Under the pieces are notes generated by a model, which made no database searches, was not told the DNA's origin, and was given only the letters and a program-made list of their open reading frames with translations. The translations under genes and the position numbers were made by a program. A stretch of 64,000 bases of DNA. Source: Parapristionchus giblindavisi (Eukaryota > Nematoda > Chromadorea > Rhabditida > Diplogasteridae). This document shows positions 1,967 through 35,040 of the stretch, in pieces. The stretch covers positions 1,715,501 through 1,779,500 of the forward strand of contig CALSFV010000204.1 of the NCBI GenBank assembly GCA_943737045.1, given 5' to 3'. Position 1 is the first letter of the stretch. Each line of letters begins with the position of its first letter.

Positions 1967-2152
1967 CTTCTCGTATGGCGAAGTTCTATTATCAGCTCAC
2001 ATATCCCGCCTGGGCAGTCCTGACGTCATAGGTCGAATAGCTAGGTTATCGGTTATCGGTTATCAAAATGTGGTCAGGATTTTCGATTTTTGGGAAATTT
2101 TGGCGCAAAATGCGGTCAGGCTTGGTACTTTATTACATACTTTTCGACCAAT

Positions 2153-2395
2153 GCCTGACGTCGCTTCAGAAGAACAGGGCTTTTCACTAAAGAATATACA
2201 TGTTCGAAAACTGCAAGCGTCATCATTATGCAGCAGTGAACTGATCTAACAAACTGATCTAATTGTAATAATACCAATACATCATGGTTGTATTTCTTGA
2301 TGAGGTGCACACATTGACTCAAATATCAACTTGATATCTTTCCTAAATCAAGTTTCAAAAAAATGAAATAAAGCGTCCTACGACTTTATGGCTAT
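2153..2395 (-). repeat. right arm of the diverged 2.2-kb inverted repeat
   Basis: Reverse complement of about 181-405, with shared blocks such as AATACAACCATGATG and CCTGTTCTTCTGAAG. Many substitutions and small gaps suggest considerable age relative to the other repeats here. Confidence 0.5.
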
Positions 2396-2529
2396 AGCCT
2401 GTACAGCTACACGGGGAGGGGCACTTATGTTGACTGCTAGTGTGATGGACGGCGAACTGGTAGTAGAAGACGTACACCTGAACAAAGGACAATGAACAAA
2501 GTTAATCGATAAACAACGATAGTTAACGA

Positions 2530-2612
2530 ATCGTTACATTTGCCTTACGCCGTAACGACGGAGACGCGGCAGAGGAGGTTACGGTGTAGTCACTTAAGGC
2601 AAATGTAACGAT
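2530..2612. repeat. short palindromic element with 18-bp arms
   Basis: ATCGTTACATTTGCCTTA at the left is mirrored exactly by TAAGGCAAATGTAACGAT at the right, about 45 bases apart; further inner pairing includes CCGTAACG against CGGTGTAG-like sequence. It is probably a tiny MITE. Confidence 0.55.
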
Positions 2613-15194: not shown

Positions 15195-18100
15195 ATGGCT
15201 ATTTCCGAATTTTACACACAGACTATCGTTATTTATGTATTATTCGTTATCGTCGGAGCTGCAAACAATTTATTAATCGTTTTGTCGATTTATAAAAACA
15301 AGTAGGTTGAATTCACTCATCTGATTTAGTCGAGTTTTGTACACTCACTTTATGCGTATGAATATTTTTTGATTCTCAAAAAAAAACTTTAAATATTGCA
15401 AAATAAAAATGCTTCAAAATCAGAGAAGCGATGGAAAATAAACTGAAACATGGCCAATACGAATCTTTAAAATTAAGATCCTTGCACTCATTTTGCTACA
15501 TACTCATAGCATTGTCTGCTATGGGCGATGCTGTACAAGTTCTTGCATATCTTCCACAAATCACGGCGTACTTCACCGGTTACGTGCTCATACCATCCCG
15601 TCTCTGTATTGTCTTTCAGGTAATAATCATTTTTAAAAGGGAAAATATATGGTGTAGAAAGTGAGTACTGTATTATCTTCATTTGGTATAGATGCTTTTT
15701 TATATTTCTAAAACTATGTGAGATTTCATGAAGAGCGTTGCATTATGATTAAGACATCAGCGAGATTCTGGTAATTAAAATGAAATGCAATGATTGATGT
15801 GATCGAGCTTACGCAATTCAAAAGATGAAAAGCGCGAGAGAAACTAAGGGAAAAGGATGCAACAAAATAATAATAATATAGACCCATAACAACCAAATAC
15901 AAGAGACTTACAAATATCCTTTCCCAAAGCTCGATCCTGTCCAGCGCCGGGAATTCACCCAGTGCTACTTGTCGGTTGGCTCTACTAGTGGCCAGATACC
16001 TTCCCCTCAGAATGTTCTAACAAGGATAGAGTACATCACATTCTTTATTCATAGGATCAGGAACTGGGCCAGAGGCGTCGCCTCGTGGCCCTTATATCCT
16101 ACAGGGATGACTCCGCCCACAATAACAATGAGAGTGAAAGGGGCATGATAGAATAACCCTCAACATCCCCCGCCTCTGGGTGATCTGGCGCCCTCGACAG
16201 ATTCTAACACATTCAAAAGATATATGATGGGGATTCATAGAGACTTGATATATCAAACAAACGATAAGGAAATTGAAGTAGTGAATAAATGATAATATGA
16301 AGAGGTATGGTGGAATTATATAACTATATGATGGTTGATAAGAGTATGATACGACATAAATAATTTGATACATAATAGTAATAGTATTACATGGAAGTGA
16401 ATGACGTATGGAATATGAATATGAAATAGTTCGAGTTATGCAAAATATTCGAACAAAATATGAAGATGAATATATTGAACATGGACGTGATGAGTTGAAG
16501 ATATATATGAAGAATATCGTGATGATGATGAATATGGTGCGTAAGATGACGATGTGAGTAAGATGTGAAGATGGTGGGAATGTTGAAGAAGATGAGAATG
16601 TGGAGATGAAGAAATTATGAAGCTGTCTGCTTCCGAATATCTTGTGACTCGATATTCGAGTAGTATTTCTTTAACCTATCAAGGTGGACCTTGTCAGTTT
16701 TCGAACCACCTTGATTGATCAAGGCGTTGGGGTATGCTATATCAATAATTTGATACGGACCCTCGTATTGGGCCTTCAACTTATGCGATACTCCTTTACG
16801 AAGGAGCACCATATCACCCTTTACTAATTTCGATGGACGAAGTTTTACATAATTTTCGTGCCATTGTTTATTTTTCTGGCTCGCTTTATCTATCTTATTA
16901 CCAATGTGTTGGTGAATAAGTTTCATATCCTTAATGAGGACGTCGGTATACTCAGGGACATCGGCATAAAGCCGTTTGATTTGTTTTCCCGCAATGTGAT
17001 CAATCGGGAATTTAGGCTCTCTACCAAATAAAGCAAAGAATGGGCTGCACTTAAGCACAGCATGAGGGCTAGCATTATACGCCATCACTACGTAATCGCA
17101 GTGACGATCCCAGTCATTTCCTTTCTCATTAGTGTAAGCACTAAGCATTGTTTCGATAGTGTGATTCATCTTTTCCACTTGACCATTTGCAGAATGGCGA
17201 TATGGTGTTGAGCTTGAGAGCTTTATATTGAGTTCTTTACAGGTGTTTTGAAAGACATCTGATGTGAATTGAGATCCACGATCAGTGTATAATTCACGTG
17301 GAAAACCATGTTTCGAAAAGAGGTCTCTTTGAAGAGATGCGATTATTGTTTCAGTTTTCTGATCAACTAGTGAACTAGCGATTACATATTTTGTGAAAGA
17401 ATCTTGTAGGACAAGAATATATCTGTTTCCATTTTGAGTTTGTGGTAAAGGACCTAATAAGTCAGCATGCACTCTTTCAAAAGGTGCCGAGGGAGTAGGA
17501 AAAATACCTAACCCTTCTTTGGTAACATCTGTGGGAGATGTTTTCCGTTTTTGACATTGATCACAAGTTTTGATGTATCTTTTAAGATCATCTTCTAAAT
17601 CCTTCCAGGTGAAACGTTGTTTTATTTTTTCCAACGTTTTCTTTTTCCCTAGATGTGCTCCAAGGATTTTATTTCCATGAAAGAATTCCATAACGGTATC
17701 CTTTAGTTTACCTGATTCAGAGAGAACGAATTGATCGTCCTCGAATAATCTTTTGAAGAGGAGAATATTATCAATTACAATGTATTTTCTACTCAGTCTT
17801 GGAGTCTGAGGAAGTTTTGAATATTGATTTGTAAGATAAGATTTCATATCAGAAATCCATTCATTGTTATTCTGATCTTCTATAATAGAGTCAGCAGAAA
17901 TAATTGATTCATCACAAATCGCATTAATGCAATTCGCTTTTGGTGGATATCTCGAAAGAGAATCAGCTAGAGCATTTTTCTTTCCTGATCGATAAACGAT
18001 AACAATATCTGCTTCGAGAATTGATGCTTGAAAGCGTTCTAGTCTACCTGATAGATCCTTCTTCTTAAAGATAGAAGTCAGTGGAGCATGATCAGTAACA

Positions 18101-21100
18101 ACAGTAGTAGTTGTACCACAGATATATGGTTTAAATTTCTTAACCGCATAAACAATTGCTAAGGCTTCTAATTCAAGAGCGACATAGTTCTTTTCATGCT
18201 TATTCAAAACGCGACTTTCATATGAAATAGGATGTAATTCTTGGTCTTCACCTATTTGTAGTAGAACAGCGGCAATCGCTTTTCCACTGGCATCAGTCTC
18301 AATTTGGAAGGGTGAACCCAATCGAGGAGGGGCAAGTACAGGAGCTGTGATCAGCTTCTGTTTCAAAATTTCAAAAGCAACTTGACCTTCTTTCATCCAA
18401 CGAAAGTTTCTTGAATTGTTCGCAATTTCGTGCAATGGATCAGCAATTTCTGCGAAACATGGAATGAATCTCCTGAAATAAGAAACCATTCCAAGAAAAG
18501 ATTTCACTGCTGTTGCATTTTCCGGTATAGGATATTGCTCGATTACTCGAACCTTTTCCGGATTTACACTCAAACCTTCTTTCGATATAACAAATCCTAA
18601 GAATTTAACAGATGATTGAGCCCATTGACACTTATCAGCTCTGATCTTAAGACCAAAGTCACTTATTTTTGTAAGTACTTCGTCTATATCACGAAGATGA
18701 GTCTCCGCTGAATGAGAAGCAATGATTACATCATCAATATAGATTAAAATAGCAGCTTGAAGCTGTCTTTTCATTTCTTCCATAACACGTTGAAACGTGC
18801 CAGGGGCTCCACACAAACCTTGTGGCATTCTCAGGTACTCAAATGTGCCGAGGAAACAAGCAAAAGCAGTTTTCTCGATGTGAGTGGGCTCCATCGGGAT
18901 TTGGAAAAATCCTGATTGAAAGTCAAAAGTAGTATAGAACGATTTTCCAGCTGTAATATCTACTATATCTGCTATTGCCGGAAGAGTATAAAATTGTTTC
19001 TTTGTTATGTCGTTGAGACGACGATAATCTTGAACAATTCTCCATGATCTCTTATCATTACCTTTAGGAACAAGGATTATTGGAGAAGCAAAAGGAGAAT
19101 TACTCGGTTGGATAATTCTTTGATCAAGCATATATGAAATTTGCTTTTCTATTTCACTTCTAAGTTCTAAAGGAACACGATACACCTTTTGGGTTGGAAT
19201 TTCTGCATTGTCCTTGAGGTCGATACGATGTTTTATTGTACCTCTATAACATCCTATGTTTCCATCTTTTAAGATGAAAGCTTCTTTGTTTTTCTCGATA
19301 ATGGCTAATAGTCTTCTTTTCTGTTCTAAACTCAGTAGAGAATTATCTAGATTGATGTGACCATCAATTAATTTTTGGCTATTCTTATCAGATGTTGGTA
19401 GACGTGGAACCTGTTTTTCCCACTGTAATTCAGGAGGAACATGGAGTTGAGGTTTAGTCAATGAATTGACTCTTCTTGTATTATTCGATTCAGGAATATC
19501 TTTTTCCATTATTGGTTCAGCCATTGCAATGGTTGAATTCTTGAATAGTCTAACTGAAGAGGCCGTTGGATTCATAATACGAAGAGGAAATAGCTTTCCT
19601 TTCGGCGAATTGATCAAACTTCTACCTACTAGGACTGAACCTAACGTTTCTTTACTATTATGTGGTAAAATAACAAAGAATTCATGAGAAATTGTAGATT
19701 GATTGATACTAGCTAGAATGATATTATCTGATCTAGGATTAAGAGTTTGATCTTCAGTAATAATCACATCAAAAGTTGGTTTATGCCTAACATGATAAAT
19801 CGTGTTGACGGGAAGAGTTGATTTACCTATTTGCATACCACCTTTAGTGAATGTAATAGGTACATTCTTATTAATGAGATGATTGATCAAATTCATTCCT
19901 AATAATACAGGAGTTGGACAATCTTTGTCTCTTGAAACAAAGAATACATGTTCAGTTTTCACCTCACCAATTGTAATTGGTACTGTGCATTTACCTATAA
20001 AATCAATTGAACCTCCATCAGCAGTACGAGCTGACTCGGTTAATGCTAAATTTAGTTTCAGGGGTGATATAGATTTATAAACCGATAATCTCATATACGA
20101 TATTGTTGCACCCGAATCAATCAGTGCTTTTGTTTCATAATCATTCAAAGTAATATTAATCACTGGAAGTCTACCATCTTGAACTACATTTACATATTCT
20201 TTTCTCCTATAAGCAATTCTAATCCAGAAACTGAAGAAGAGTACAATAATAAATTCAAGAAAAAATGAATTATATAATGGGTTCTTTGTACTGTCAAGTG
20301 AACCAGCAGACGTAACTGGTAAAATCAATATTGCTATCATCATTGTAGTCAATGTGATAAGATGAGTTCTAGGTAGTGTTCTCACTTTAGTCATATTATA
20401 AAGCATGAGCTCTCTCTCATTATCTAATAATTGTTGTTCAACTAATTCACGAGCTCTTTGTTCTCTAGATACATGTCTAATATGATTGACTTTAGGACTA
20501 ATCGGAATAAGAGAAGTAGCAATTTTGCCTGGGAAACAGCAAAGACCACGAAATAGAGCATACTTAATCAATCCATAGACAATCAGAAAAATAGCAAAAA
20601 TACCTACTAATGACAGTAGTATATTCCTTAAGACTGATTGCCACCATGAAATGAATGAGAATGCCTTGTCCTTTGCTTCGACCATCAAGTTGACTGCTCT
20701 TGTCGATCCTTCTTTAGCAAGAGAGATTCCTTTGTTTTTCAGATCTTCTACCTTGTGCTTGAACTGATCCCAAACTGTAATGGATGATTTATAATCCTCA
20801 ATTGCTTTCATTCCAGATTCTAATAGTGAAAACAAAGGCAAACTTCCATTATGGGAATGTTCTAATCTAACTAATTTAGGTTTTTCTAATAGTTTACCAT
20901 TATGAGAAACACCTTCGATTTCTCGATTATGTAATCGTTCTCTGAGCTGTGAACAGCTAATCGTTCGTGATTCTTTTTGAAGAATCAAAGTGGTTTCATC
21001 AACATACCAGATACTATCGTTGTATTTGATGGGCAGCTGTTCATAACATGTATTGTTATACTTATGATTATGAAAGATTTCATCAGCATGAATAGCTTCA

Positions 21101-24100
21101 CAGCCATATATACTGAATATATTTCTATCTATTTCAGAAACAGTAATGTCTCTTCTTCCTAACAGCTTTTGAAAGCCTTGTGTAGGATTAATCCTCACAT
21201 TCATTCGTAGAATAGTATGTTTTCTTCTTTGCAGTTCGCAAATATTTAAATATTTTGCAGCGAAATCAATGCTTGGTCTACTTGTAGTAGACAAAGTTGT
21301 AGGAATTGAAATTGTAGTGAGTTTGGGAGGTATAATTATGGTACTTAAAGATATTGGGGTAACAGTAGAAGTTATCAATGGTGATGATGGAGGAGGCTTA
21401 CCATACCTTACCTTTGGTCTCTGCTCGCGAAAGATGAAATGAGTGGGCAGTTGCAGAGGAATTTTGATTGAAATATTATACCTTGACATATCTGATATAG
21501 CTAATTGTGTCATGAATCTATTGTTCATGAATTCAGCTATATTATGATCTCTCACTGTTTTTGGTAGAGTTCTGGCTGGACCAAACTCTTTTTCCAATTC
21601 TTTGTCTAAATAATTATGATTCATTGTAATCAAGTCGTCTGCTAGTAATGTAGCACCGATTTCTTCTAATAGTTTTGGTGGTTCATAATAAAAACCGTCA
21701 GATTGTGCCCGTTGAATGAATTCATCGGAATTTGCTTTGATATCTCTTTTCAATATATCCATTAGCTTCGAAATTGGCCACGTATTAATACGGACTTTAA
21801 GTTCATTTTTATATTTTCGAGTCCTAATGGCTCGTAGAAATACCCTAGTTAGTTCCATATCACTATATGCACTTGCTTGCCATAGGATATCTTCCCATGT
21901 CACATTATTTTCTTTTACAGCTGATAAGATAATCTTATCTTCAATTGGATTAAAAGAAGTTACTGTTCGATTATTCAATAATCTTTCCTTCAAATTGTCT
22001 TGTTCATATGTGAAAAGACTATCATCTTTAGAATACCTATTCAATCTATATAAATGAGTGATCTCATTCAATGACTTAGCTTCAGAATATTCTGTGAATA
22101 TCAATGATATATCATCAGACATGATTATTGTTCTCTCCCGTAAACATTCATCTATCTCATTATAATCAGATAACTGAGTTATCGTCTTCTCAATCTCTTC
22201 AATAATCACAGTATTCTCATTAATGAGAACTTTATATAAACCTATATAATCTGGGCAAAAAGGATTGACCATTTCTCTGTCCCAACAGATGGTTCTATTG
22301 AGATTCATACATTGACCAAATTGGATATTACAATCGTTCAAATTTCCTAATGTTGAACCAATAGTGTTAACACCAAGGTCAAAGATCTTACCATATTCAA
22401 GTACATGATATACATATTCGGTACATAGGGTTCCAAAGAATGGTATTTCCACTTTCTTTTCATCAAAAGTTCTCCAAATATGTGCATCATGTTCTCTCAG
22501 TTCACCAAGAGTAGATATTTTCTTTCTCTCAATCTCTCTACAAGAAGAATATGATATCGGTGATTCGATACTGGTTACAGTTGTATCTATTTTAAAAAAT
22601 AGGGCAAATGTAGTTATACAAGAAAGTGTTTTCACCTCTGAACATGCGAATGCTTCCATTTGTGTTGGAAGTATATTATTCTTGTATACTTTAGCTATTG
22701 TCTCTACCGTATCCGGTGAGATATCTGGGAGATTACAAGATAACTGATTAGGATCATTCAATAGGAATAGCGCTGTGGGTGTGGTTCTATTGTCGCATTT
22801 ATAATATGTTTGAGCGCTAGCCATAGGGAAAGAAAACACAAACGACATAAGTGCAATACAAAGGAACATATTATATCCCATGCCAGGATGAGGTGAACCT
22901 CTCTTTCTTTGAGTTCTTCTAAAGCTATTATTATTTTGCTGTATAGCAGGGTTGGATACATAAGATGGAAAACAATTGGCCTCTCCGTTTTGAACAGGAG
23001 GGTATTGATTATTAAACATAGGACGAGTGTTTCTATTACGGTTAAAATTTCCATTAGAATGGGGATTTCTTTGAGTATTATTATATTCATTACCATGAAA
23101 ATGTCTATTCTGATTTGAATATTGATTGAATCTATTGTCTAAATTATGATAATTGCCTCTATGGTTACCTCTAGAGAAATGACCGTAGTTATGATTGAAA
23201 TTATTATTATTATGATAATTCTGACCTCTGATTGATGTTTGGGACAGCTGATTGCGTATGAAGTTCACCTCGTTGCCAAGTCGATCGATCTTATCATTTA
23301 CTAACGACTCGTCCAACTTCATGAATGTAAGTTGCTGGTCAGCCTTTTCAAAAGCTTCATTCAACGTCTTGAAGGATCTGTCCCTCAATTTTTGTTTGAG
23401 TTTAATGGGGACACCTCTACAAAAGTGGCTGATCATTAGTTTTTCCCTGTTTTCAGGGGAGAAGTCTGGGTAGGCTTCGTCAACCGTATGCCTTACTCTT
23501 TTTAAGAATCTTTCAAGATCTTCCTCATCAGTCATAGCTAAAGCCAGTTTAGATTGTGCCACGGCTGTAGAAGCTGTGGTAATTAATTTCGAACTGAGTG
23601 CATCTAATAGTTCTTGGAGATTATACACTTCACCAATAGATTCATATACCCTTCTAGCTTTACCTTCAAGCTTAGCAGGCAAAATTTTAAAAGCTTTAGC
23701 TTCGTTCAATCCTAATGCATTAATGAGAGTATTGAATCTGAGCATATATGCACCTAGTGTTTCGTTCTCTCCATTAAATGGAGGAAAGACTTGTAATGTT
23801 TGAGGATCAAGATGGTCTCCCATCCTAGTGGAAGGCTTAATAGCCTCTTCTAATTTCTCCTTGGCAATCGGCTTGTCTTCCTTAAAAGGAATAATATTTT
23901 GACTGTTCAGAGTTGGTTTCTTATTTACCAAATTAGCGACCTTATCTGTTAGACGAGCAAAAGTGGACTTCCGCTCCTTGTTATTCTCATTCACTAAGTG
24001 TGAGAATTGGGATACTGTAGATGATTCACTTCTCTCTCTATTCTCTCTTTCTTTTGGGTTTCGTTCATTTTGTTGACGAAACTTTGAAGGGACAGAAAAA

Positions 24101-27100
24101 CTGTGTCTACGAGTAATGGATGGCTTAAGTGATGAATGTGGATGGGCAGTAGCAATAGGCTGAGGAACACAATCAGATATAGGAGTTGAATGCGCGATAG
24201 GGATAGGGGTAGACATTAAAGGGGAAGAATTAGAATGGTGAGTAAGAATAGCATTTGGAGTATGAAATTGTGAAGAAGATAATTGAGAATTTGATTGACC
24301 AATTGTTGAATTATTTAATGATGTATTGGAAGGAATAGAAGAGTTAGAGTGAGAGGCTATATTGGCAGTTTGAGATGGAATAGGAGTATTACCTACATCA
24401 TTATAGATAGACGATCTAGGAGTATCAAATGCGGTACGCTTTCGCGCAGGTTTATTAAAGGAGAATCCACCATTAAAGAGATCTACATAGGATTTATGAG
24501 GGGAAAAGACATTGGCAACAACAGATTTATCTGATTGTTTATTGTCAATAACTGAAGTGAAACTTTTTTTATGATGAGTATTGGGAACAATAGTATCCAT
24601 AGATGAGTTACTACTTTGTGATTGTGAACGAGATGGACTCTCACTATTAGATATGGGTGGCGTAGTTACTCGACAAACATTCTTACCTTTGTCTTCTTCT
24701 GAATATCCGTATCTATTAGGTGGTCGCAGCGACTTTCTATCACGGAGAGTCGGAATGGTGACTAGTATTAATGAATGCCAGTGGGTGTGTTCGACCCTTC
24801 GCCTACAATCTCTATCTAACCGTTTACTGTATCTTTCTCTTCAATACTCTCTCCATTACAGCTGGCATCGCACTCATCCTTTGTCCTCTTATAATCTTTT
24901 ACAACGTATCATCTGGCCATTCTATCCATAATCCAATGCCACATGCTACACCATATGGCTATCATATCTATCCTTTATGCATCCTTTGATATCTCCCGAC
25001 TATGAGTGTACTGTAAAGATCAAAGATCAAACTGAATATTTTCTGATTTCACGGGGAAATCGCTCTCAATGAATGAGAGTTACACCGAAGTAATTGAATA
25101 CTAAATAAATAATACTTGAGAGCAATGAGTTGCACATTTATATTTATATATATTTTAAACTTTATATTTTTATTTTATTATTATTTTTTTTTTTTTTTTG
25201 TGATGAAATTGTATTATTATTAAATAAAGCCTATATTCTATAATAATGACGACGATATGGTCCAAGTCTCGCTTATTGACAGTTATAGATCACGATCTCT
25301 AGGTACGCTTGACCCTCTCTTCTCTCTTAGACATAGTTCAAAGAAGCGCCATGATCAAAGACATCTTTTGCAGGCCATTCCTATATAAGGGCCTGAATGA
25401 GACCAAATGTCAGTCATTCTTAGTCATAATGATGGCATACGAATCAGCTATATGTTCGATGATCGCATCAACAGCGAGGAATCTTGTAGGTTTTCCCTCA
25501 AAGCGTTCAACTTTACCAAGAGCGCTTCTCATCCACGTCTTGAAGAAGTGAGTATTTGCTTATTTTACATATTGATATTACTATTATTATTATTATTTTC
25601 CTTAATTATTTTGTTTTTGAAATTAATAGTGAACTAATTTCCTAGTTCTCTTCATCATGAATTCCTTTTTTTTTTCATCTGTTCCTAAAGGGATTTTGTA
25701 TTGAAAAAATAGTTTAACCTATTTTTTTTGTCAGGTATGGAGAGGAAACCGAGGACCGTAAGGTCTTCATTCACCATTTGATATGCGGGATGAAAAGAAT
25801 GCCAGTCCCCGAATGGGCTCATCTTCACGCTCCATGCATCAGGAGATTGTCTGAAGTTCTACGAGGCAAACCTCTACTGAAGAGGGGTGGTGTGCCCGAT
25901 AAAGTTCTTCTGGATGTAAGTCGCTTAAACAACTTTAAAATATTGGAAAAAAAATGTTGCATGATTGCAGGAATTGTGCTCTTGCCAACAAGAATATCGT
26001 CTAAATGTTACTGAGCTATTAGTCCTCGCTACTAATCTGTTATCTAAGAAAGTTTTCAATGCATTTATATATGATTATTCATTCAATATATGGAACATTG
26101 AAGTGCTAATTGGTGACTTGAAGTATGCCGTTGGGAAAGTAAGTTTAAAGTAATTTATTTATTATTATTATTATTATTTTTTTTTTAATATAAATTCATA
26201 TACATAATTATATTTGTTATAGGTAGGAGCACCAGAAGATAGAAAGAGAAAGGAAGAATTTGTTGAAGGGATGAGTGAAGAAATGAAAGTAATGAAAGAG
26301 GAGAAAGAGGCAGAGGTACAACAACAAGAAGAGATAGGAGAACAAGGAACAAAGGAGGTCGAAGAAGAGATACTATTAGAAGAGGAAGGAGATATGAAAG
26401 AAGAAATAGTATCTCCAGAAGACGAAGAAGATCTATTAAAAGAGTGATGTATTATAATCGTTTAAACAATTTTAACATTTGTGATAAAATGATGCTAAGA
26501 AAAATGTTATTGTGTGATACAAATTTAAAATAATGTGCAAGAAGTAAAGAGAAAGAAAAGAGAAACAAACGAGAAGGAAAAGAGAAAGAAAAGAGGAAGA
26601 AAAAGACAAAGAAAAGAGAAAGAAAGACTAGCAAGATTATGTCTATAAACAGATATTACAGAGGTTCTCAGATTTTCCGGGTAGAAACAGTTCCGGATAC
26701 ACTTTTCTACACTTCTACATACCTACGCGCGCGCTCTTGTTTAAATAATAGGCCTAATATATTCTCACAGGTGAGCGCAGTTCATCCGAAGTGATCAACC
26801 TGGAGTGCACAAATAAATAAGGGGATGAGTAACCTGCTAATGAATGAAATGGCGGAAAACTGAGAAACATGTAATAGATGATGTCGACCCTTGTGCACTA
26901 TACTATCCTTATTTAATCTGATCATCCCATGACTCACTGGTTGCTATGGGCACCCAATGGTGTATACAACAATTACATTTGATACTCGATCTAAATGATT
27001 ATAATATACTAAGAGGTATAGTGGTCATGGTCCCTCAATAACAGAATGATGATTGATTAATAATAATGATGAATAAACTACAACACTATGTCTCTCTATG

Positions 27101-30100
27101 CAGGCACTCTCCCATACTACTAAATAGATTGGATAGATGACAGATAGAGATAAGAAGTATTCCATGCACGGGCTGGTTCTAAGACCACAGTAACCTAATG
27201 ATATGACTACATATAGGGAAGGCATATTTTGCCAAAAGGACTGCTAATAGGGAGGGTATAGATTCAAATTAAGTCTCAATATAAGTGAGGCTCCCTCTCT
27301 ATCTACGAACAAACATCCTAAACGAATAGACTGATAATAGACAATAATACAGAACAAGCTTTTTGAAAGCGATACTAAAGAATTTGGCCGAATTCTAGAG
27401 AACCAACTAACTACTGGGCTGTGTCCGAACCGGGACCTCCATGATGTGATCGAGCTTACGCAATTCAAAAGATGAAAAGCGCGAGAGAAACTAAGGGAAA
27501 AGGATGCAACAAAATAATAATAATATAGACCCATAACAACCAAATACAAGAGACTTACAAATATCCTTTCCCAAAGCTCGATCCTGTCCAGCGCCGGGAA
27601 TTCACCCAGTGCTACTTGTCGGTTGGCTCTACTAGTGGCCAGATACCTTCCCCTCAGAATGTTCTAACAAGGATAGAGTACATCACATTCTTTATTCATA
27701 GGATCAGGAACTGGGCCAGAGGCGTCGCCTCGTGGCCCTTATATCCTACAGGGATGACTCCGCCCACAATAACAATGAGAGTGAAAGGGGCATGATAGAA
27801 TAACCCTCAACATGATATATTTACGACTCTAAAGAGTAATGTGCTCATGCATAATAAAACTAATAATTTATTGTTTATTAGACAAGTGAAACAAAAAGTT
27901 TAAGAAAAATAATAAATTATTATTATGCACGAGCAGGTGATATCACGATTTTGCCATCGGTAGGATAGGTATTATTCTATATCGCATAAACCAAGTTCTA
28001 TCCTTCTCTCATTGTTTTCTATTCAAGAAACCGTTCATATATGAAACTTGATGAGGACGAAAACGCTTGAATACAGTTGATGCTGACAAAATCATGCTCA
28101 CACAGATGAGATAATTTGCTATCAGTAGCACTTGGCCAGACAGCCCTGTACTTTTATGGTTAAAAAAGAGAGCGCTTCAAAATCATCTCACAAAAAGTAA
28201 GAGACTTCTCAGACAATTGCCAGAATTGCCGGCAATTGCCGGTTGCCGAAAAAGACGTTGCCGCACACCCCTGATATGGATGGCCTACTCTGACATCCTG
28301 CATGACTATAATACATCATTGCAGATTGTACCTGTTACTGCGAATGCGATAGCTGCTGTATCAATGCTCGCGCTTGGTATCGATCGATTCTGGGGATGCT
28401 ATTTTCCTACGCGGTCAGTTTCAGTACACTACAAACAGGAAAAAAAATGTACTCCACGGTAGGGTTGCCGTTGCGTAAGCGTGATCTTTCCATCTCTTGC
28501 CCCTCTCTCGTCATTTCCCACACTAGGGAAGAGAGACTGCCAGAGAGCGTAAAAGGTGCGGGAAATACGCACCTTCTGTCAGCGATGTCTGAAATCACGA
28601 AGTTGGGAAGGGATAGAGTTCACGGGCGATTGCTAGAGAGAGGGTTAAGGATGAGAACAATAGTCTTCGCTCCCTTTCCTACAACCCTACTCCACAATAA
28701 ACGTGACCTGTGACGTGCTATATTCAACACTTTTTTTGTTGTTTTTAACACAAGCGAGTGTTAAATATAACACGGTTGAGTACATTTTTGTGTGTATTTC
28801 AAGCAATCATGAAAATAATGATTTTAAACTCTAAGATATAGCACGTTACCAGACCGCGATCGCTACAATAAAGCCGACATTTGTATTGTCAGTATAAAAT
28901 GCACTTGGATAAAATATGACAAATATTCTGTAAATACCAAGAGAAAGGTTGTCAAAACGTAACACCAAATATTTCGCCTGCACTCTATCCACTACCTCTC
29001 GATTGCCACTGAACTTCCTCGCACCTAACCCGTCTGACCTTCGCCACGCTGATTGATATAAATTAGAGATTCTTCATCAAAATGATGTAAAGAAATAGTT
29101 ATTGCGACTAATTTCGTACAAATAATTCAAGTGATTTTATATCGTCAATAATTCTGTTGAAAACAAGAAAATTCAAACCATAGATGAGAAATACTGTTCA
29201 TAGATATCGAACGTTGTCTGGGTCGACCCATTTCCTCTGTCATTTTACAATAATTTCCGCCTATGTCATAATGGAGATCGGACAGATGCTCTATCACTTC
29301 CAGGATGAGTATGTTTTTTTTCGATTTCCAATAATAATGTGAAAACGTAACACCAAATATTTCGCCTGCAATTTCTATTTAAAAAAACTTTTATTGAACA
29401 AACGTTTAAAATGTCTTATTTGTCGAGTTTATACGGAGCCCCATCAAATCGGTCTTGATAAGTTATTAGAAGATTCATTACGAGATGAAGACGATAGACA
29501 ATGAGAAACTATCAATGATCTACACATTACAGCGAAATATTGTGCATGATAAACACGATATTTATGGGCAATGGTCGTATTTGGTTCTTCATGCAAGCCG
29601 TTGCTAATTATGCTCTAGCGACCATTATCTACATCGCAATCGGACTGAAGCTGTGGCTCATGAAGAGTTTGTTGATGCATTAATTTAATTTATCTTACAT
29701 TAAATAAATGTGACAACAAGTGATAAATAAATAGCGTGAATTATAATGGGTAGGGTCGAGGGGGGCCATTAAATTAAGCCTATTATTGATGCTTTCAGAT
29801 TCGAATAAAATAGACGTTCAAATATTCAAAACATTGTCAATTGAGCTAGTTTCGATTATATGCGGATATGGCACAACATGTGTACTCGGGATTATGCTCT
29901 CCGGAGACGATACTACGGTACTATTTGAATTTAATTAAATTCAATGTAACTTTACGACATAATTTGACCCCTCAACTATTCCTGCTCTCATTATTCATTT
30001 TCTTGTCGAGCTTTACTGTCTATAATGGACGAAACTTTGAATCCGCTACTAACAACTACTTTTGAATTACTAATACTCAATAATTTGAGCACAACTGATT

Positions 30101-30394
30101 GTCTATTATGAGTAATCATATTGTTATTTTATTTTTGCCTCCAGGATCTGCTATCATACGCATCAACTGAACTTCTGATTGGAGTTCCAATTAACATTTC
30201 ATTCATATCTAATTACTATATTTATTTCGCTTCAAAGTGAGCCTATCATAATCTTTTCCAGAAAGCTAACGATTGCTCTTTACAGTGAAAAATTTCGAAC
30301 TGCTTTCAAGCGGCAATTTCCAATAATCTCCAGAAAAAACGAAGTTTCACAAGTTTCAACCGGATTTGTTTCGTCGCGTTTATCTAAAGTGTGA
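15195..30394 (+). CDS. serpentine (Srsx-like) chemoreceptor GPCR, gene B, with a 12-kb LTR element in intron 2
   Basis: Exons 15195-15301, 15478-15619, 28325-28413, 29204-29308, 29533-29666, 29799-29917, 30145-30236 and 30286-30394 join without a stop into 298 residues. TM1 is in exon 1, followed by YKNKSLHSFCY. TM2 is in exon 2, TM3 with LGIDRFWGCYFPTR is in exon 3, and TM4-TM7 follow. TM7 ends with a SNYYIYFAS sequence, and the C-terminal tail is basic. Splice phases equal those of genes A, C, D and F. The TTAAG acceptor of exon 2 is shared by all five copies; a CAG further upstream (exon from 15424) would also stay in frame here and add 18 residues, but the equivalent is closed in A and C. 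Intron 2 is 12.7 kb because of the retroelement; whether it is still spliced out cannot be judged from sequence. AATAAA follows the stop. Confidence 0.7.
15795..16165 (-). repeat. 3' LTR
   Basis: 371 bp, matching 27442-27812 base for base as far as I compared. It reads TGTTGAGGG... to ...CACATCA in element orientation. Inside, on the minus strand, are GGATATAAGG (TATA-like) and AATAAA (16044-16049), spaced as expected for a short R region. Confidence 0.95.
16166..16177 (-). other. polypurine tract of the retroelement
   Basis: On the minus strand AGAGGCGGGGGA directly abuts the 3' LTR. A purine run at this position primes plus-strand DNA synthesis in LTR elements. Confidence 0.75.
16615..24600 (-). 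CDS. Gag / Env-like / protease / RT / RNase H / integrase polyprotein (2661 aa)
   Basis: One ORF without frameshift or stop. Order by residue: Ser/Asn-rich N-terminus 1-260; Gag-like helical core 263-455; Asn/His/Arg/Gly-rich basic tract 456-570 with no CCHC knuckle; hydrophobic signal-like segment 575-597; Cys-rich glycosylatable ectodomain-like segment 598-1320; TM about 1326-1352; two more hydrophobic segments 1412-1432 and 1443-1465; aspartic protease IDSGAT (Asp1495); RT with FDFQSGF (Asp1893) and YIDD (1954-1957); RNase H with ETDASG (Asp2103) and TDHAP; integrase with H2308, H2316, C2346, C2349, then D2380, D2440, E2476 (D-D-35-E) and a GPY at 2614-2616. Every catalytic motif I looked for is present, so it could be functional. 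The first ATG after an in-frame stop is used. Env-like material between Gag and protease is unlike textbook Ty3 or retroviral order. Confidence 0.93.
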   Translation of the reverse strand: MDTIVPNTHHKKSFTSVIDNKQSDKSVVANVFSPHKSYVDLFNGGFSFNKPARKRTAFDTPRSSIYNDVGNTPIPSQTANIASHSNSSIPSNTSLNNSTIGQSNSQLSSSQFHTPNAILTHHSNSSPLMSTPIPIAHSTPISDCVPQPIATAHPHSSLKPSITRRHSFSVPSKFRQQNERNPKERENRERSESSTVSQFSHLVNENNKERKSTFARLTDKVANLVNKKPTLNSQNIIPFKEDKPIAKEKLEEAIKPSTRMGDHLDPQTLQVFPPFNGENETLGAYMLRFNTLINALGLNEAKAFKILPAKLEGKARRVYESIGEVYNLQELLDALSSKLITTASTAVAQSKLALAMTDEEDLERFLKRVRHTVDEAYPDFSPENREKLMISHFCRGVPIKLKQKLRDRSFKTLNEAFEKADQQLTFMKLDESLVNDKIDRLGNEVNFIRNQLSQTSIRGQNYHNNNNFNHNYGHFSRGNHRGNYHNLDNRFNQYSNQNRHFHGNEYNNTQRNPHSNGNFNRNRNTRPMFNNQYPPVQNGEANCFPSYVSNPAIQQNNNSFRRTQRKRGSPHPGMGYNMFLCIALMSFVFSFPMASAQTYYKCDNRTTPTALFLLNDPNQLSCNLPDISPDTVETIAKVYKNNILPTQMEAFACSEVKTLSCITTFALFFKIDTTVTSIESPISYSSCREIERKKISTLGELREHDAHIWRTFDEKKVEIPFFGTLCTEYVYHVLEYGKIFDLGVNTIGSTLGNLNDCNIQFGQCMNLNRTICWDREMVNPFCPDYIGLYKVLINENTVIIEEIEKTITQLSDYNEIDECLRERTIIMSDDISLIFTEYSEAKSLNEITHLYRLNRYSKDDSLFTYEQDNLKERLLNNRTVTSFNPIEDKIILSAVKENNVTWEDILWQASAYSDMELTRVFLRAIRTRKYKNELKVRINTWPISKLMDILKRDIKANSDEFIQRAQSDGFYYEPPKLLEEIGATLLADDLITMNHNYLDKELEKEFGPARTLPKTVRDHNIAEFMNNRFMTQLAISDMSRYNISIKIPLQLPTHFIFREQRPKVRYGKPPPSSPLITSTVTPISLSTIIIPPKLTTISIPTTLSTTSRPSIDFAAKYLNICELQRRKHTILRMNVRINPTQGFQKLLGRRDITVSEIDRNIFSIYGCEAIHADEIFHNHKYNNTCYEQLPIKYNDSIWYVDETTLILQKESRTISCSQLRERLHNREIEGVSHNGKLLEKPKLVRLEHSHNGSLPLFSLLESGMKAIEDYKSSITVWDQFKHKVEDLKNKGISLAKEGSTRAVNLMVEAKDKAFSFISWWQSVLRNILLSLVGIFAIFLIVYGLIKYALFRGLCCFPGKIATSLIPISPKVNHIRHVSREQRARELVEQQLLDNERELMLYNMTKVRTLPRTHLITLTTMMIAILILPVTSAGSLDSTKNPLYNSFFLEFIIVLFFSFWIRIAYRRKEYVNVVQDGRLPVINITLNDYETKALIDSGATISYMRLSVYKSISPLKLNLALTESARTADGGSIDFIGKCTVPITIGEVKTEHVFFVSRDKDCPTPVLLGMNLINHLINKNVPITFTKGGMQIGKSTLPVNTIYHVRHKPTFDVIITEDQTLNPRSDNIILASINQSTISHEFFVILPHNSKETLGSVLVGRSLINSPKGKLFPLRIMNPTASSVRLFKNSTIAMAEPIMEKDIPESNNTRRVNSLTKPQLHVPPELQWEKQVPRLPTSDKNSQKLIDGHINLDNSLLSLEQKRRLLAIIEKNKEAFILKDGNIGCYRGTIKHRIDLKDNAEIPTQKVYRVPLELRSEIEKQISYMLDQRIIQPSNSPFASPIILVPKGNDKRSWRIVQDYRRLNDITKKQFYTLPAIADIVDITAGKSFYTTFDFQSGFFQIPMEPTHIEKTAFACFLGTFEYLRMPQGLCGAPGTFQRVMEEMKRQLQAAILIYIDDVIIASHSAETHLRDIDEVLTKISDFGLKIRADKCQWAQSSVKFLGFVISKEGLSVNPEKVRVIEQYPIPENATAVKSFLGMVSYFRRFIPCFAEIADPLHEIANNSRNFRWMKEGQVAFEILKQKLITAPVLAPPRLGSPFQIETDASGKAIAAVLLQIGEDQELHPISYESRVLNKHEKNYVALELEALAIVYAVKKFKPYICGTTTTVVTDHAPLTSIFKKKDLSGRLERFQASILEADIVIVYRSGKKNALADSLSRYPPKANCINAICDESIISADSIIEDQNNNEWISDMKSYLTNQYSKLPQTPRLSRKYIVIDNILLFKRLFEDDQFVLSESGKLKDTVMEFFHGNKILGAHLGKKKTLEKIKQRFTWKDLEDDLKRYIKTCDQCQKRKTSPTDVTKEGLGIFPTPSAPFERVHADLLGPLPQTQNGNRYILVLQDSFTKYVIASSLVDQKTETIIASLQRDLFSKHGFPRELYTDRGSQFTSDVFQNTCKELNIKLSSSTPYRHSANGQVEKMNHTIETMLSAYTNEKGNDWDRHCDYVVMAYNASPHAVLKCSPFFALFGREPKFPIDHIAGKQIKRLYADVPEYTDVLIKDMKLIHQHIGNKIDKASQKNKQWHENYVKLRPSKLVKGDMVLLRKGVSHKLKAQYEGPYQIIDIAYPNALINQGGSKTDKVHLDRLKKYYSNIESQDIRKQTAS
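20545..22880 (-). other. Env-like membrane glycoprotein segment inside the polyprotein
   Basis: Residues about 574-1352 of the polyprotein. A signal-peptide-like start (MFLCIALMSFVFSFPMASAQ) leads into a roughly 720-residue region with 15 cysteines (eleven at 602-819, four at 1121-1216) and several N-glycosylation sequons (near 604, 768, 876, 899, 1042, 1182, 1194, 1251). A Pro/Thr/Ser-rich stalk lies at about 1068-1110, and a single membrane anchor at 1326-1352 is followed by CC. This is the architecture of a class of viral surface glycoproteins. The part around CYEQLPIKY reminds me weakly of glycoproteins of some negative-strand RNA viruses of invertebrates (chuvirus type), which have been captured by LTR elements; that assignment is a guess needing a profile search. 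Confidence 0.7.
25351..26447 (+). CDS. four-exon passenger gene antisense to the retroelement, unknown acidic-tail protein (256 aa)
   Basis: Exons 25351-25547, 25735-25915, 25971-26138 and 26223-26447 total 771 bases and join in one frame. Donors are GTGAGT, GTAAGT and GTAAGT; acceptors are TTTGTCAG, GATTGCAG and TGTTATAG. The first in-frame ATG after a stop is used. A pyrimidine-rich CTCTCTTAG 21 bases before it may be a further splice or trans-splice site. Residues 1-180 look globular and helical with scattered Cys and aromatic residues; from about residue 183 the protein is Lys/Glu-rich, turning strongly acidic, with probable coiled coil, ending EDEEDLLKE. I recognise no family. Introns on this strand would survive retrotransposition because they are not introns in the element's own RNA. 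It could be a captured host gene or an element-encoded antisense regulator; neither is shown. Confidence 0.75.
27424..27441 (-). other. candidate primer-binding site
   Basis: Immediately downstream of the 5' LTR the minus strand reads TGGAGGTCCCGGTTCGGA. It begins with the TGG expected to pair with a tRNA 3' CCA end. I could not match the remainder to a particular tRNA from memory. Confidence 0.5.
27442..27812 (-). repeat. 5' LTR
   Basis: 371 bp, the same sequence as 15795-16165. On the minus strand the TATA-like GGATATAAGG (27737-27746) and AATAAA (27691-27696) suggest that element transcription starts near 27710 and that the polyadenylation signal lies in R. Confidence 0.95.
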
Positions 30395-31253
30395 AAATAA
30401 ACATATTGTGTATTATTCAGTCGTGATTTAAAAAAAAAGAGAAATCAATCGCGATACATGCGTAGCGGTTGGTTTTTTTTTCACCAAATATAATATATAT
30501 ATATATATACATATATATTTGGTGCTTGCACATCATCACTATTTGCAACTCTCCGCTCTGGCAATTCTTTCTTGCTTTCTTCCGGATTCTTCACTGTTGG
30601 ATAAATAAATTCATTACATAATACAACTACGCCAACACCAATTCGCCATGCGACGAATATTAAAATCTTGAATCATGGGACATCCCGCCCGAATCCCGTC
30701 CGTCCAGAGTCCCGCGAATATGTTCACACTATTTTTCGAAAAAGAAATATGAAAAAATGCCGAAGTTTGAATTTCGAATTTTTTTCGCTTTGTTAAAATC
30801 ACTTTACCGACTGTATCCTAATATATTATCAAATATACTCTCATGTCGAAGTGGCGAATGGTCTTGTCTGGCGAACGTGGGTTTGAATCCCCTGCCATGT
30901 AAACTGTTTCGTGACGTTTTTTTCTGAGCACTTTTAACGTGTTTCGAATAAATTTACCTGTTATTCAAGAAAAAACAGATGTGCCCCTCCCTCCTCGCAC
31001 TCTGCGTACTGTATTATTCTTTAGAGTACAATATCATCTCGTTCGTACATTGTGCGGTGCGTCAGCTGTTTGACGTTTGCTTCTCGTTTATACTATTTGT
31101 CTGAATAATTGTTAATGTACTAATGTACTAATCAATTTATGCATACCTAGATTGGCATACTTTTTGTATTTTTTTTTACAACAGAACTCTGACCACTCAC
31201 CTTCTCGACTACATTTTCAATATATGTGATCTTAGTTGGGCTCGACTTTGATA
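30395..31253. other. intergenic, gene B to gene C
   Basis: Holds a TATATA run near 30490-30520 and the receptor-flank repeat near 30540-30660. The duplicated 5' flank of gene C begins with the tRNA-like block at 30843-30898 (B-box-like GGGTTTGAATCCC). No gene is seen. Confidence 0.5.
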
Positions 31254-32828
31254 CAGTACTGGCCAAAAAAGTGTAACATTTGGATTTTTCGCCATAACTT
31301 ATTTCAAACTCAACCGATCGAGTCCAGATTTTCAGGGATAATTTTGATAGAGTTTTGACGTGTTTTATACAACAAATTAGCCAGGGTTATTCCTTACGGT
31401 GAAATTTATTTAGAATTTATCAAAAGTCACAAAAATGAGATTTTCGGTTTCTTCGATTTCGTCTTAATTTTTTCACTAATTTTGCTAGCAATGTGTGTTG
31501 TATCGTTTTAAAAGTATGAAACTGATTCTTGTGAGCAAGAATCTACCGAGATCCGAGCGAGAATCCATTAGTCGTGGACGTCAGATGGGACTGTCACTGG
31601 CACTCTGTCACAGCAGTTCCGAGTGACTGTTTCGACTATCCTGAAGGTCATCAAAACTTCAATCCGTGCTCAAACAATGAAGAAGGTTAATGTACGACCT
31701 CGCAAGTCGACCACGACATCGGATCGTCTGATTACATGCATCTCGAAGGAGAAACTGAGGCTCACTGCAATGGACATCAAGCGAGCACTAGCGGAGATTC
31801 GCTAATTTGAGGTAGTTAAGGTTTCTAAACAGGGCTGAAAAGATGTTTGAGGTGTCCGTGAACAATGTACAGCATCGTCTTCGTGCTTCGGGTCTCTTCG
31901 AACGTCGACATATCAAGAAACCGCTGATCTCCGAAAAGAATCGCAAAGCATGGATCACATGGGCAAAAGAGCACTGATATTGGACCCCCTAACAGTAGAA
32001 TTAGGTCTTATTCTCAGACGAAAACAAGTTTCTGATGATTGGTACGGTGGAAATAAATCATGTTCGTCGTCCGGTTGGCACTAGATTGGATGTGAAGTAC
32101 CAACGGACCACCGTGAAGCATGGAGGAGGATCGTTGATGTTGTGTTGTTGTTTCTCTGAAGATGGGGTTGGACCCCTGGTTCACATGAAGAGAATTATGA
32201 AGAAGGAGATATGCTAGAGACACTTTTCATTCCTTCAAACATCTTTTCAGCCCTGCTTACAAACCTTAACTACCTCAAATTAGCGAATCTTCGCTAGTGC
32301 TCGCTTGATGTCCATTGCAGTGAGCCTCAGTTTCTCCTTCGAGATGCATGTAATCAGACGATCCGATGTCGTGGTCGACTTGCGAGGTCGTACATTAACC
32401 TTCTTCATTGTTTGAGCACGGATTGAAGTTTTGATGACCTTCAGGATAGTCGAAACAGTCACTCGGAACTGCTGTGACAGAGTGCCAGTGACAGTCCCAT
32501 CTGACGTCCACGACTAATGGATTCTCGCTCGGATCTCGGTAGATTCTTGCTCCCAAGAATCCGTCTCATACTTTTAAAACGATACAACACACATTGCTAG
32601 CAAAATTAGTGAAAAAATTAAGACGAAATCGAAGAAACCGAAAATCTCATTTTTGTGACTTTTGATAAATAAATAAATTTCACCGCAAAGGATAACCCGG
32701 GCTTATTTGTTGTATAAAACACGTCAAAACTCTATCAAAATTATCCCTGAAAATCTGGACTCGATCGGTTCAGTTTGAAAAAAGTTATGGCGAAAAATCC
32801 AAATGTTACACTTTTTTGGCCAGTACTG
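31254..32828. mobile_element. Tc1-like element rearranged into a 0.6-kb-armed inverted repeat
   Basis: The termini CAGTACTGGCCAAAAAAGTG and its complement are flanked by TA (31252-31253 and 32829-32830), the Tc1/mariner target site. The left arm, 31254 to about 31850, is repeated inverted at about 32236-32828 with few differences, so both arms carry the start of the transposase. The size of 1575 bp is close to a normal Tc1 element, but the real right end has been replaced by a copy of the left. Confidence 0.85.
31540..32222 (+). pseudogene. degraded Tc1-family transposase (N-terminal and middle parts)
   Basis: Pieces in different frames: a helix-turn-helix-like region with TVSTILKVIKTS and KEKLRLTAMDIKRAL (31623-31802), then RLRASGLFERRHIKKPL and KNRKAWITWAKEH (about 31870-31975), then VKHGGGSLMLCCCF (about 32110-32155). 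These fit the order of a Tc1-family transposase. Internal stops and frameshifts break the DDE domain. The first part recurs on minus at 32280-32462 in the opposite arm. Confidence 0.75.
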
Positions 32829-32843
32829 TATGTTGTAAGCATA

Positions 32844-34493
32844 CAGTAGCGCCGCAAAGTCTTAATACACTTTTTAGTTCTGCTACCATTTTGGCGTCAT
32901 ATGAGATATCAAGCTGAAACTTGTACATGATGTACCCACAGTATGTACGTATTCGATCCTCTTATAAGGTCTCACGGGCCTTTCTGGTTATTGTATAGTG
33001 ATGACGCTACCGAACAACACTTTTTCGAAAATTCATTATTCTTTCAGGGATTTTTTCGTACTCATCAAACTTCGTGAGCATTAAGAGAACAACAAGGCCT
33101 ATCCAGAAAAAAAGTTTCAGGTTGCTGCGAATTCGGGTATTGGCTGCAGACTTGCTGCAACTTCGCAGTCGCAAAATCATATCTCGGCTTCTAGAAGAGC
33201 TTTAAAGGAGTTCAAAGCAGCAAACTGATTCTCTCGGTGAATCCTAATGATCCTGTAAGTATGGTAGCGCTAGCCCATCATTCACCCTCATGGATCGAAA
33301 AATATCACTTTTTAAAAAGACCCAAGTTTGAAAAATCACTATTCTGGGGGCGGACTTTGTAAAATTCTGGTTTTTGGATAGGAATGTTGAAAATATATTA
33401 ATTAATCTATTCCCCGCTTTTTAGAGCGATTGCTATTATTTCTTGCCTGCGGCAGTCGATTATCTGAAGGATAGTCGTTTAGGCCGCGCTCCCTTCTCAT
33501 CACGCGACCCGCAAACATTTCTGGGTCTTCGACATTGCTCAATGACGATTTTGCCGCTTGTTCTGGTTTTGGTTAGTCAGGATAGAGAGACACTTTATGA
33601 ATCGAGTTTTTGACCTTTGTGTTTTCGATCTTTGATCTTTTATCTTTGCTCATTTTTCGTCAAATTTTGCTCAAAATGATAATGAAAAGTTGTTTCATTC
33701 GATAACAGAAGATCAAAAACGCTTTCTTTTATAGACTACGATGTTCAGGGTTAACGACATTACGTTTTAGAGTTATTTCATCTATCAAATCTCGTCGAGC
33801 AATGTCGAAGACCCAGAAATGTTTGCTGGTCGCGTGATGAGAAGGGAGCGCGGCCTAAACGACTATCCTTCAGATAATCGACTGCCGCAGGCAAGAAAGA
33901 ATAGCAATCGCTCTAAAAAGCGGGGAATAGATTAATTAATATATTTTCAACATTCCTATCCAAAAACCAGAATTTTACAAAGTCCGCCCCCAGAATTGTG
34001 ATTTTTCAATGTTGGGTCTTTTTAAAAAGTGAGTTTTTTCGATCCATGAGGGTGAATGATGGGCTAGCGCTACCATACTTACAGGATCATTAGGATTCAC
34101 CGAGAGAATCAGTTTGCTGCTTTGAACTCCTTTAAAGCTCTTCTAGAAGCCGTGATATGATTTTGCGACCACGAAGTTGCAGCAAGTCTGCAGACAATAC
34201 CCGAATTCGCAGCAACCTGAAACTTTTTTTCTGGATATTCCTTGTAGTTCCCTCAATGATCATGAAGTTTGAAGAGTACGAAAAATTCCCTGAAAGAATA
34301 ATGAATTTTCGAAAAAGTGTTGTTCGGTTGCGTCATCACTATGCAATAACCAGAGAGGCCCGTGAGACCTTATAAGAGGATCGAATACGTACATACTGTG
34401 GGTACATCATGTACAAGTTTCAGCTTGATATCTCATCTGCCGCCAAAATGGCAGCAGAACTAAAAAGTGTATTAAGACTTTGCGGCGCCACTG
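32844..34493. mobile_element. 1650-bp TA-flanked giant hairpin element
   Basis: The ends are CAGTAGCGCCGCAAAGTC and the complement of CAGTGGCGCCGCAAAGTC, flanked by TA (32842-32843 and 34494-34495). The arms of about 690-700 bp (32844 to about 33540, and about 33800-34493) are close inverted copies around a 260-bp centre. No transposase ORF spans the arms. It is a Tc1/mariner-type nonautonomous foldback sitting only 15 bases from the preceding element. Confidence 0.85.
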
Positions 34494-35040
34494 TATGTAC
34501 ATCGTTTCTCCAACACATTGAGAACGGTCACTAAAAAGTAAAAAAAAATCATGTGTTTTATTTCTATTTTTTTCCATTTATATTCAGTTGATCTTTTTTT
34601 CCATCGCTGTTCATGCAGAAATGTATTATTTTCCCTTTCCAAACATCATCTACGTTCCTCTATTTACCTATTATCATACCTATGCACCTACATATATCTA
34701 ACCATGCGTACTTACGTTCCTCACACTATCACGAGTCACACATGCCAAGAATTTAGATTGCACTCACATGGAATTGTCTCAGAAGGGTCGATACCCGACA
34801 ACAAGTTTCTCAAATACGAGACTCACATTTGAGGAACACGATGTTGCTCACAGTTAATTCAAAGCAATGTCGCCTCAACTGTGAAAGAAAAAAATCGCTC
34901 ATTGTCAGCTAATTTGAAACTAGCAATGTTCTCTCGCTTCCTTTTTTTCTACGAGAGAGCGCTGCAAGGAAAATTAAAATTAGCTTTCCGCGACTACCGC
35001 TATTCTTGATTTTGCCTCAGTTCATTCTTGGCCTGTCTAC

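What the first reader, a model, noticed from the sequence alone, without database searches (positions are those of the whole stretch)
25351..26447. Spliced gene on the opposite strand inside an LTR retroelement's leader
Four exons with good nematode-type splice sites join into a 256-codon frame, antisense to a complete, young retroelement. Frame continuity across three junctions (phases 2, 0, 0) is hard to get by chance. Introns in this orientation survive retrotransposition because they are not introns in the element's RNA. LTR elements with an antisense, intron-containing passenger gene are rare. It may be a captured host gene, or an antisense regulator of the element analogous in position to antisense genes of some retroviruses.
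Basis: partly seen in the sequence, partly recalled or inferred. Interest (0 to 1): 0.92.

Follow-up and report, generated by a model that had tools for sequence, protein, structure and literature searches.

The report
Antisense gene inside a mobile element
A virus-like jumping element in this genome carries a small extra gene with introns, written backwards in its opening stretch, and older and distant relatives of the element carry the same kind of backward gene, so it looks like a long-kept working part rather than an accident.

Summary
The four-exon frame is real: 25351-25547, 25735-25915, 25971-26138 and 26223-26447 join without a stop, phases 2,0,0. It lies antisense in the leader of a complete element (identical 371-bp LTRs, 4-bp TSD, one gag-glycoprotein-pol frame).

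It is no recent capture. The three closest copies lack it, through one shared deletion. Older, decayed copies keep it, or parts of it, in the same place and orientation, and third codon positions change most often. A separate family (gag 46% identical; C41) has a homologous antisense gene in its leader, with exon 1 of equal length and phase; against its C202 relatives dN/dS is about 0.1. A third family (C240, C263, C299) has antisense genes or pieces in the same place; one has four exons, phases 2,0,0, but sequence homology to the window gene was not shown.

Best reading: an antisense accessory protein gene acting in trans, probably a regulator. Function is inferred; no RNA was seen. Antisense accessory genes are known in plant and fungal LTR elements and deltaretroviruses, elsewhere in the element. 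New variant of a known kind.

The parts
15791..15794 (.). target site duplication TGAT, left copy
   Evidence: sequence
15795..16165 (-). 3' LTR of the element (element is on the minus strand)
   Evidence: identical to 27442-27812
16618..24840 (-). single frame gag - glycoprotein-like - protease - RT - RNase H - integrase, 2741 aa from stop to stop; first Met at residue 81
25340..26301 (.). segment missing in the three closest copies (C334, C272, C241); junction identical in C334 and C272, slightly different in C241
25382..25389 (+). TATA box TATATAAG of the antisense gene; a similar box precedes the gene in C232 (47 bp), C41 (44 bp) and C263 (59 bp), none in C82
   Evidence: by consensus only
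25548..25734 (+). intron 1, GTGAGT...TCAG
25735..25915 (+). exon 2
25916..25970 (+). intron 2, GTAAGT...GCAG
25971..26138 (+). exon 3, with LNVTELLVLATNLLSKK, found again in the relatives
26139..26222 (+). intron 3, GTAAGT...ATAG
26223..26447 (+). exon 4, acidic tail (19 acidic and 3 basic in the last 40 residues) and stop
26448..27441 (-). rest of the element's leader, shared with the gene-less copies
27425..27441 (-). primer binding site, TGGAGGTCCCGGTTCGG on the element strand
   Evidence: position next to the LTR; tRNA not identified
27442..27812 (-). 5' LTR of the element
27813..27816 (.). target site duplication TGAT, right copy

Best explanation
It is an old accessory gene of this LTR retroelement lineage. 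It sits antisense between the 5' LTR and gag, has its own TATA promoter, and is read towards the 5' LTR. Its introns survive copying because they are not introns in the element's sense RNA. The spliced mRNA encodes a protein of about 230 residues with a conserved core and an acidic tail. I think it works in trans as a regulator of the element (of its transcription, RNA fate or silencing): gene-less sister copies with nearly identical LTRs have still been copied, so the gene is not needed in cis. Shown: position, exon structure, conservation in diverged copies, codon-pattern selection on the protein, deletion in sister copies. Inferred: promoter use, splicing in life, nuclear or regulatory role, action in trans.
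For: Frame and splice sites. Complete element. Diverged copies hold the gene: C82 aligns to window 25340-27386 through gene and leader, C322 (which lacks exon 1) to 25772-27385; protein matches of 29-57% identity at C82, C232, C322, C207 and C21. Gene-less copies C334, C272 and C241 share one deletion. Purifying selection: protein-blind alignment gives mismatches in exons 1-3 by codon position of 39,19,56 (C82), 29,15,35 (C322) and 32,25,68 (C232) (chi-square p 7.5e-5, 0.015, 2.8e-6). C41 against C202a: 117 codons, dN 0.098, dS 0.95; against C202b: 116 codons, dN 0.099, dS 0.87. A second family carries it: C41 antisense gene next to a gag of 46% identity, exon 1 of 119 nt ending in phase 2 like the window's from ATG 25429, profile match E 2e-5 (probability 77) over 88 columns, score 37.4 against a best of 19.85 in 40 shuffles. 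Antisense gene hits lie upstream of gag in 5 of 18 gag-bearing places. In the C41 family C276 and C3 have lost the gene too.
Against: No transcript was seen. Only 1 of the 4 close copies with paired LTRs has the gene, and 1 of 4 C41-type gag places (C289 by probe only). 13 of 18 gag-bearing places have no upstream hit; 4 of these 13 were read. All older window-type copies found are broken. Gene-less copies are as young as the window copy (0-1 LTR substitutions). C202a against C202b shows no clear constraint (dN 0.043, dS 0.083, alignment running past the exon). Introns are less diverged than exons and about as much as second codon positions, which selection on the protein alone does not explain. 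C82 has no TATA box. No known domain reached a cut-off.
Confidence: 0.8

Rival explanations
1. A host gene captured by an ancestor of these elements and carried as a passenger, with its own host function and no role for the element.
For: Gene-like structure with introns and TATA box. Relatives not tied to an element at C21, C48, C232 and C202.
Against: Held by two element families with gags 46% alike, in the same place and orientation. No cellular homologue found in Pfam, PDB or the protein collection, though that collection is uncalibrated here (one search found nothing for the element's glycoprotein either).
Confidence: 0.12
2. The functional product is the antisense RNA, which pairs with or interferes with the sense leader; the protein is secondary.
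For: The gene runs head-on into the 5' LTR. Introns are better conserved than exons.
Against: Mismatches are most frequent in third codon positions and dN/dS is about 0.1 for C41 against C202, which an RNA-only role does not predict.
Confidence: 0.1
3. A separate small mobile element nested in the leader.
For: A sharp segment 25340-26301 is present or absent between close copies.
Against: The same leader position is occupied in C82, C322 and C41. The segment's inner end lies inside exon 4, so the tail would not belong to it. C276 and C3 keep both ends of a C41-type gene, as a deletion would leave.
Confidence: 0.03
4. A chance frame in AT-rich and purine-rich DNA.
For: The exon 4 tail lies in purine-rich sequence shared with gene-less copies.
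Against: Conserved frame, splice sites and codon-position bias in diverged copies.
Confidence: 0.02

Closest known systems
Grande gene23 and the antisense ORFs of RIRE2, Retand and PvRetro13 in plants, Boty in fungi (PMC7264820, PMC11963269)
   Same: Extra protein gene antisense to gag-pol, kept across families, unknown function; Grande's has its own promoter and a nuclear product.
   Different: Those lie between pol and the 3' LTR; this one lies between the 5' LTR and gag. The word 'intron' was not found in the main text of either paper. 97% of Retand clusters encode TRP28; no Pfam family reached its cut-off here.
HBZ and APH proteins of deltaretroviruses (PMC10186651)
   Same: Antisense, spliced, protein-coding, in an integrated retroelement.
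   Different: Transcribed from the 3' LTR; HBZ has a bZIP domain. Here the TATA box is internal, the gene is in the leader, and no domain is found.
CERV of C. elegans Cer1 (PMC10309623)
   Same: Spliced accessory protein of an animal LTR retrotransposon; CERV is nuclear and needed for export of genomic RNA.
   Different: 'Antisense' and 'opposite strand' were not found in that paper; that CERV is sense-encoded is recalled. No sequence comparison was made.
ORF3s of bdelloid rotifer LTR elements (PMC5408684) and sORF2 of insect mdg1-group elements (PMC11952523)
   Same: Extra genes of invertebrate LTR elements.
   Different: The passages seen do not describe them as antisense genes; 'intron' was not found in the main text of PMC5408684.

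Membership tests
LTR retroelement with gypsy-like gene order | identical TG...CA LTRs, TSD, PBS | tested here: met
LTR retroelement with gypsy-like gene order | order protease-RT-RNase H-integrase | tested here: met
LTR retroelement with gypsy-like gene order | position in an RT tree | not tested
   no tree was built
Grande/Retand antisense ORF class | antisense to gag-pol, protein-coding | tested here: met
Grande/Retand antisense ORF class | between pol and 3' LTR | tested here: not met
   25429-26447 lies between gag and the 5' LTR
Grande/Retand antisense ORF class | TRP28 domain (Retand) | tested here: not met
   no Pfam match to the window protein at E <= 0.1; only PF16913 at E 0.12, below its cut-off,
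Grande/Retand antisense ORF class | own promoter | tested here: inconclusive
   TATA box by sequence only
HBZ/APH | spliced antisense transcript | not testable with these tools
   splice sites only; no RNA data
HBZ/APH | promoter in the 3' LTR | tested here: inconclusive
   an internal TATA box lies just upstream of the conserved frame; start site not measured
HBZ/APH | bZIP domain (HBZ only) | tested here: not met
Recently captured host gene | close donor copy elsewhere in the genome | tested here: not met
   no DNA match to query 1-948 outside the window; protein relatives only 29-57% (matches at E below 1e-5); the tool calls its counts lower bounds
Window gene family: C240 and C263 antisense genes | sequence homology to the window gene | tested here: inconclusive
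   hhalign within shuffles; pairwise z 0.9; gapless exon-register test of C240 gene 2: 4 of 5000 and 1 of 5000 against the window, 3 of 5000 (C322), 281 of 5000 (C232)

The most novel reading that the evidence does not exclude
Gypsy-type elements of this genome carry a long-lived, multi-intron antisense gene in the 5' leader, coding for a trans-acting regulator, with gene-less copies living off gene-bearing ones; and because the exons diverge fast at silent sites while the introns stay similar, the mature mRNA may be escaping sequence-guided silencing such as small RNAs.
Probability: 0.2. Interest if true: 0.9.

Novelty: new variant of a known kind. Interest (0 to 1): 0.74.

Why it matters
In the papers seen, antisense accessory genes of LTR elements are described in plants, fungi and retroviruses, and their roles in the LTR retrotransposons are unknown. 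A spliced one at a new position, kept by selection and lost again by deletion in two families, would widen that picture. Natural pairs of copies with and without the gene make its role testable. That its introns are better conserved than silent exon sites is odd and needs an explanation.

Tried and rejected
Rejected: chance frame; recent host capture; nested mobile element; sense-strand splicing as the cause of the gene-less copies (the missing segment does not begin GT and end AG on the element strand; read by eye).

Led nowhere: protein collection searches with the window protein, a 12-row alignment and the glycoprotein piece, no hits, so these negatives are uncalibrated for this organism; PDB (none; one chance-level match, E 0.86); Pfam and NCBIfam (for the antisense proteins only weak matches below cut-off); plasmid records (none); Rfam on the window (none); SL1. 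Pairwise and profile tests of C240 genes 1 and 2 against the window family failed. Weak hits at C306, C203, C660, C267, C227 and C209, and the hits at C29, C681, C48:388164 and 403522, C348, C464, C83 and C260, were not followed.

Full report
Observation. The element around them is complete and young: LTRs of 371 bp without a difference, TG...CA ends, TGAT duplications on both sides, a PBS. Its single frame on the minus strand has gag (named from its place and its relatives; no Pfam gag match), a glycoprotein-like part (weak match to Monjiviricetes_fusion, E 1e-4, below Pfam's cut-off), protease, RT, RNase H and integrase. The gene points at the 5' LTR. A TATA box lies at 25382 and ATG 25429 follows 47 bp later; the distance is 47 bp in C232, 44 in C41 and 59 in C263, while C82 has no such box and C240 gene 1 none in the 56 bp read before its ATG. 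Upstream of ATG 25429 the window resembles C82 and C232 as DNA, but mismatches there have no coding pattern and gaps break the frame; after it they do have one. I take 230 residues as the protein.

Close copies. A DNA search found the leader in three other copies with paired LTRs, C334, C272 and C241. All three lack window 25340-26301. C334 and C272 have the same junction; C241 has it with small differences nearby. Taken alone this could be an insertion in the window copy.

Older copies. Protein searches found decayed relatives at C82, C232, C322, C207, C21 and C48. C82 aligns with window 25340-27386, through gene and leader, and C322, which lacks exon 1 and has a different stretch in place of much of exon 2, with 25772-27385; C207 has a short leader match next to its exon 3 piece. 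The gene was therefore there before, and the three close copies lost it. C232, C21 and C48 could not be tied to an element. Splice donors and acceptors recur where those parts are kept (by eye). All these copies carry stops, frameshifts or missing parts.

Selection. Codon counts on protein-matched exon pieces gave high silent and lower replacement differences in most comparisons (pieces of 8 codons are noisy, one of them with pN above pS). Since those pieces were chosen by protein match, I repeated the count on a DNA alignment blind to the frame: mismatches at codon positions 1, 2 and 3 were 39, 19, 56 for C82, 29, 15, 35 for C322 and 32, 25, 68 for C232, uneven at p 7.5e-5, 0.015 and 2.8e-6. 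These tests treat sites as independent, and the comparisons share the window sequence.

A second family. The window's gag piece found 18 places (20 matches, two places split). C41, with gag 46% identical, has an antisense gene in its leader: TATA box, exon 1 of 119 nt ending in phase 2 as in the window from ATG 25429, one exon standing for window exons 2 and 3, a last intron in phase 0, and an acidic tail. Homology to the window family: pairwise z 5.9, reached by 1 of 2000 shuffles; profile E 2e-5, probability 77, over 88 columns, score 37.4 against a best of 19.85 in 40 shuffles. Two C202 relatives differ from C41 with dN about 0.10 and dS 0.87-0.95; compared with each other they give dN 0.043 and dS 0.083 on an alignment that runs past the exon, which shows no clear constraint. 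C276 and C3, about 98% like C41 in the flanks, lack the gene but keep its upstream region and its 3' end; C289, the fourth C41-type gag, had no hit and was not read.

A third family. C263 (broken after part of exon 2), C240 and C299 (matches only, not read) also have antisense frames upstream of gag. C240 has two in tandem. The second has four exons with phases 2,0,0 and an acidic tail, but its first ATG overlaps its TATA-like box, so its start is uncertain; the end of gene 1 was not resolved. Sequence homology to the window gene was not shown: pairwise z is 0.9, hhalign scores are within shuffles, and a gapless exon-register test gave 4 of 5000 (exon 3) and 1 of 5000 (exon 2) against the window, 3 of 5000 against C322, but 281 of 5000 against C232. 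The register was chosen after looking. I count this as the same position and layout, not as proven kinship.

Distribution. Antisense gene hits lie upstream of gag, on the other strand and within 3 kb, in 5 of 18 gag-bearing places: C204 (the window), C41, C240, C263, C299. Of the other 13, C334, C276 and C3 show a deletion, C347 was read over 1.7 kb and shows none, and 9 were not read. The tool calls its counts lower bounds.

An oddity. Introns 1 and 2 differ less than exons 1-3: 17.5% against 28.9% (C82), 13.7% against 30.2% (C322), 15.9% against 31.8% (C232), and far less than third positions; second positions do not differ from introns. Gap placement in T-rich introns may inflate identity. 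If real, either the introns are constrained or the exons change faster at silent sites. I have no test that tells these apart.

Mechanism. Shown by sequence: place, orientation, exon layout, codon-pattern constraint, loss in two families. Inferred: transcription from the TATA box, splicing, and a role in trans. Since gene-less copies with 0-1 LTR substitutions were recently copied, the gene is not needed in cis. Runs of basic residues in the window and C240 tails would suit a nuclear protein, but C41 has none; this is read by eye. A regulator is my best guess (about 0.45 for that step alone).

Literature. Plant and fungal elements have antisense genes between pol and the 3' LTR, and Grande's has its own promoter (PMC7264820: sections 3 and 5 and passages; PMC11963269: passages). 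Deltaretroviruses have spliced antisense genes from the 3' LTR (PMC10186651: passages). PMC7264820 says that additional ORFs, sense or antisense, also occur upstream of gag-pol, citing Steinbauerova 2011, which I did not see. Passages only were seen of PMC5408684, PMC8220671, PMC10309623 and PMC11952523; abstract and passages of PMC12440569. Searches showed me no animal LTR element with an intron-bearing antisense gene in its leader; I judged from titles and the starts of abstracts on the rows listed, apart from the papers named here, and the library is open-licence only.

Limits. No RNA data; organism unnamed; protein collection negatives uncalibrated.

The claim that relatives match the protein only from the new start was wrong and is replaced by the test; identity ranges, the C202 pair, missing TATA boxes and unread places were added.

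Noticed in passing
window 18000-23000 (minus strand), residues about 655-1440 of the frame: A glycoprotein-like part sits between gag and protease in one frame with pol, with a weak match to Monjiviricetes_fusion. An envelope at this place in the order seems unusual (recalled).
   Followed up: partly
window 25548-25734 and 25916-25970: Introns of the antisense gene are better conserved than its exons between old copies.
   Followed up: partly
G000:C3, locus L088 about 1650-3700: Where C3 lost the antisense gene, about 2 kb of other sequence sits, with ends that look by eye like inverted repeats of each other.
   Followed up: no
G000:C202:1384012-1384362 and 1392269-1392625: Two open C41-type antisense exons in opposite orientation, 8 kb apart, with no C41-type gag match on that contig.
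   Followed up: partly
G000:C37, C655, C231, C28, C1: A stretch of about 65 bp resembling LTR positions 165-229 occurs in opposite orientation at two points 7-10 kb apart on each of these contigs, as if in terminal inverted repeats of another element.
   Followed up: no
window 31251-34497: Three pairs of long inverted repeats, 162-706 nt and 96-99% complementary.
   Followed up: no
window 28116-30353 and 37063-38816: Pieces of two stretches 84-89% alike, 8.5-8.9 kb apart, beside the element.
   Followed up: no
G000:C263, locus L086 about 2430-4400 on the reverse strand: Repeated blocks in the leader after the broken antisense gene.
   Followed up: no
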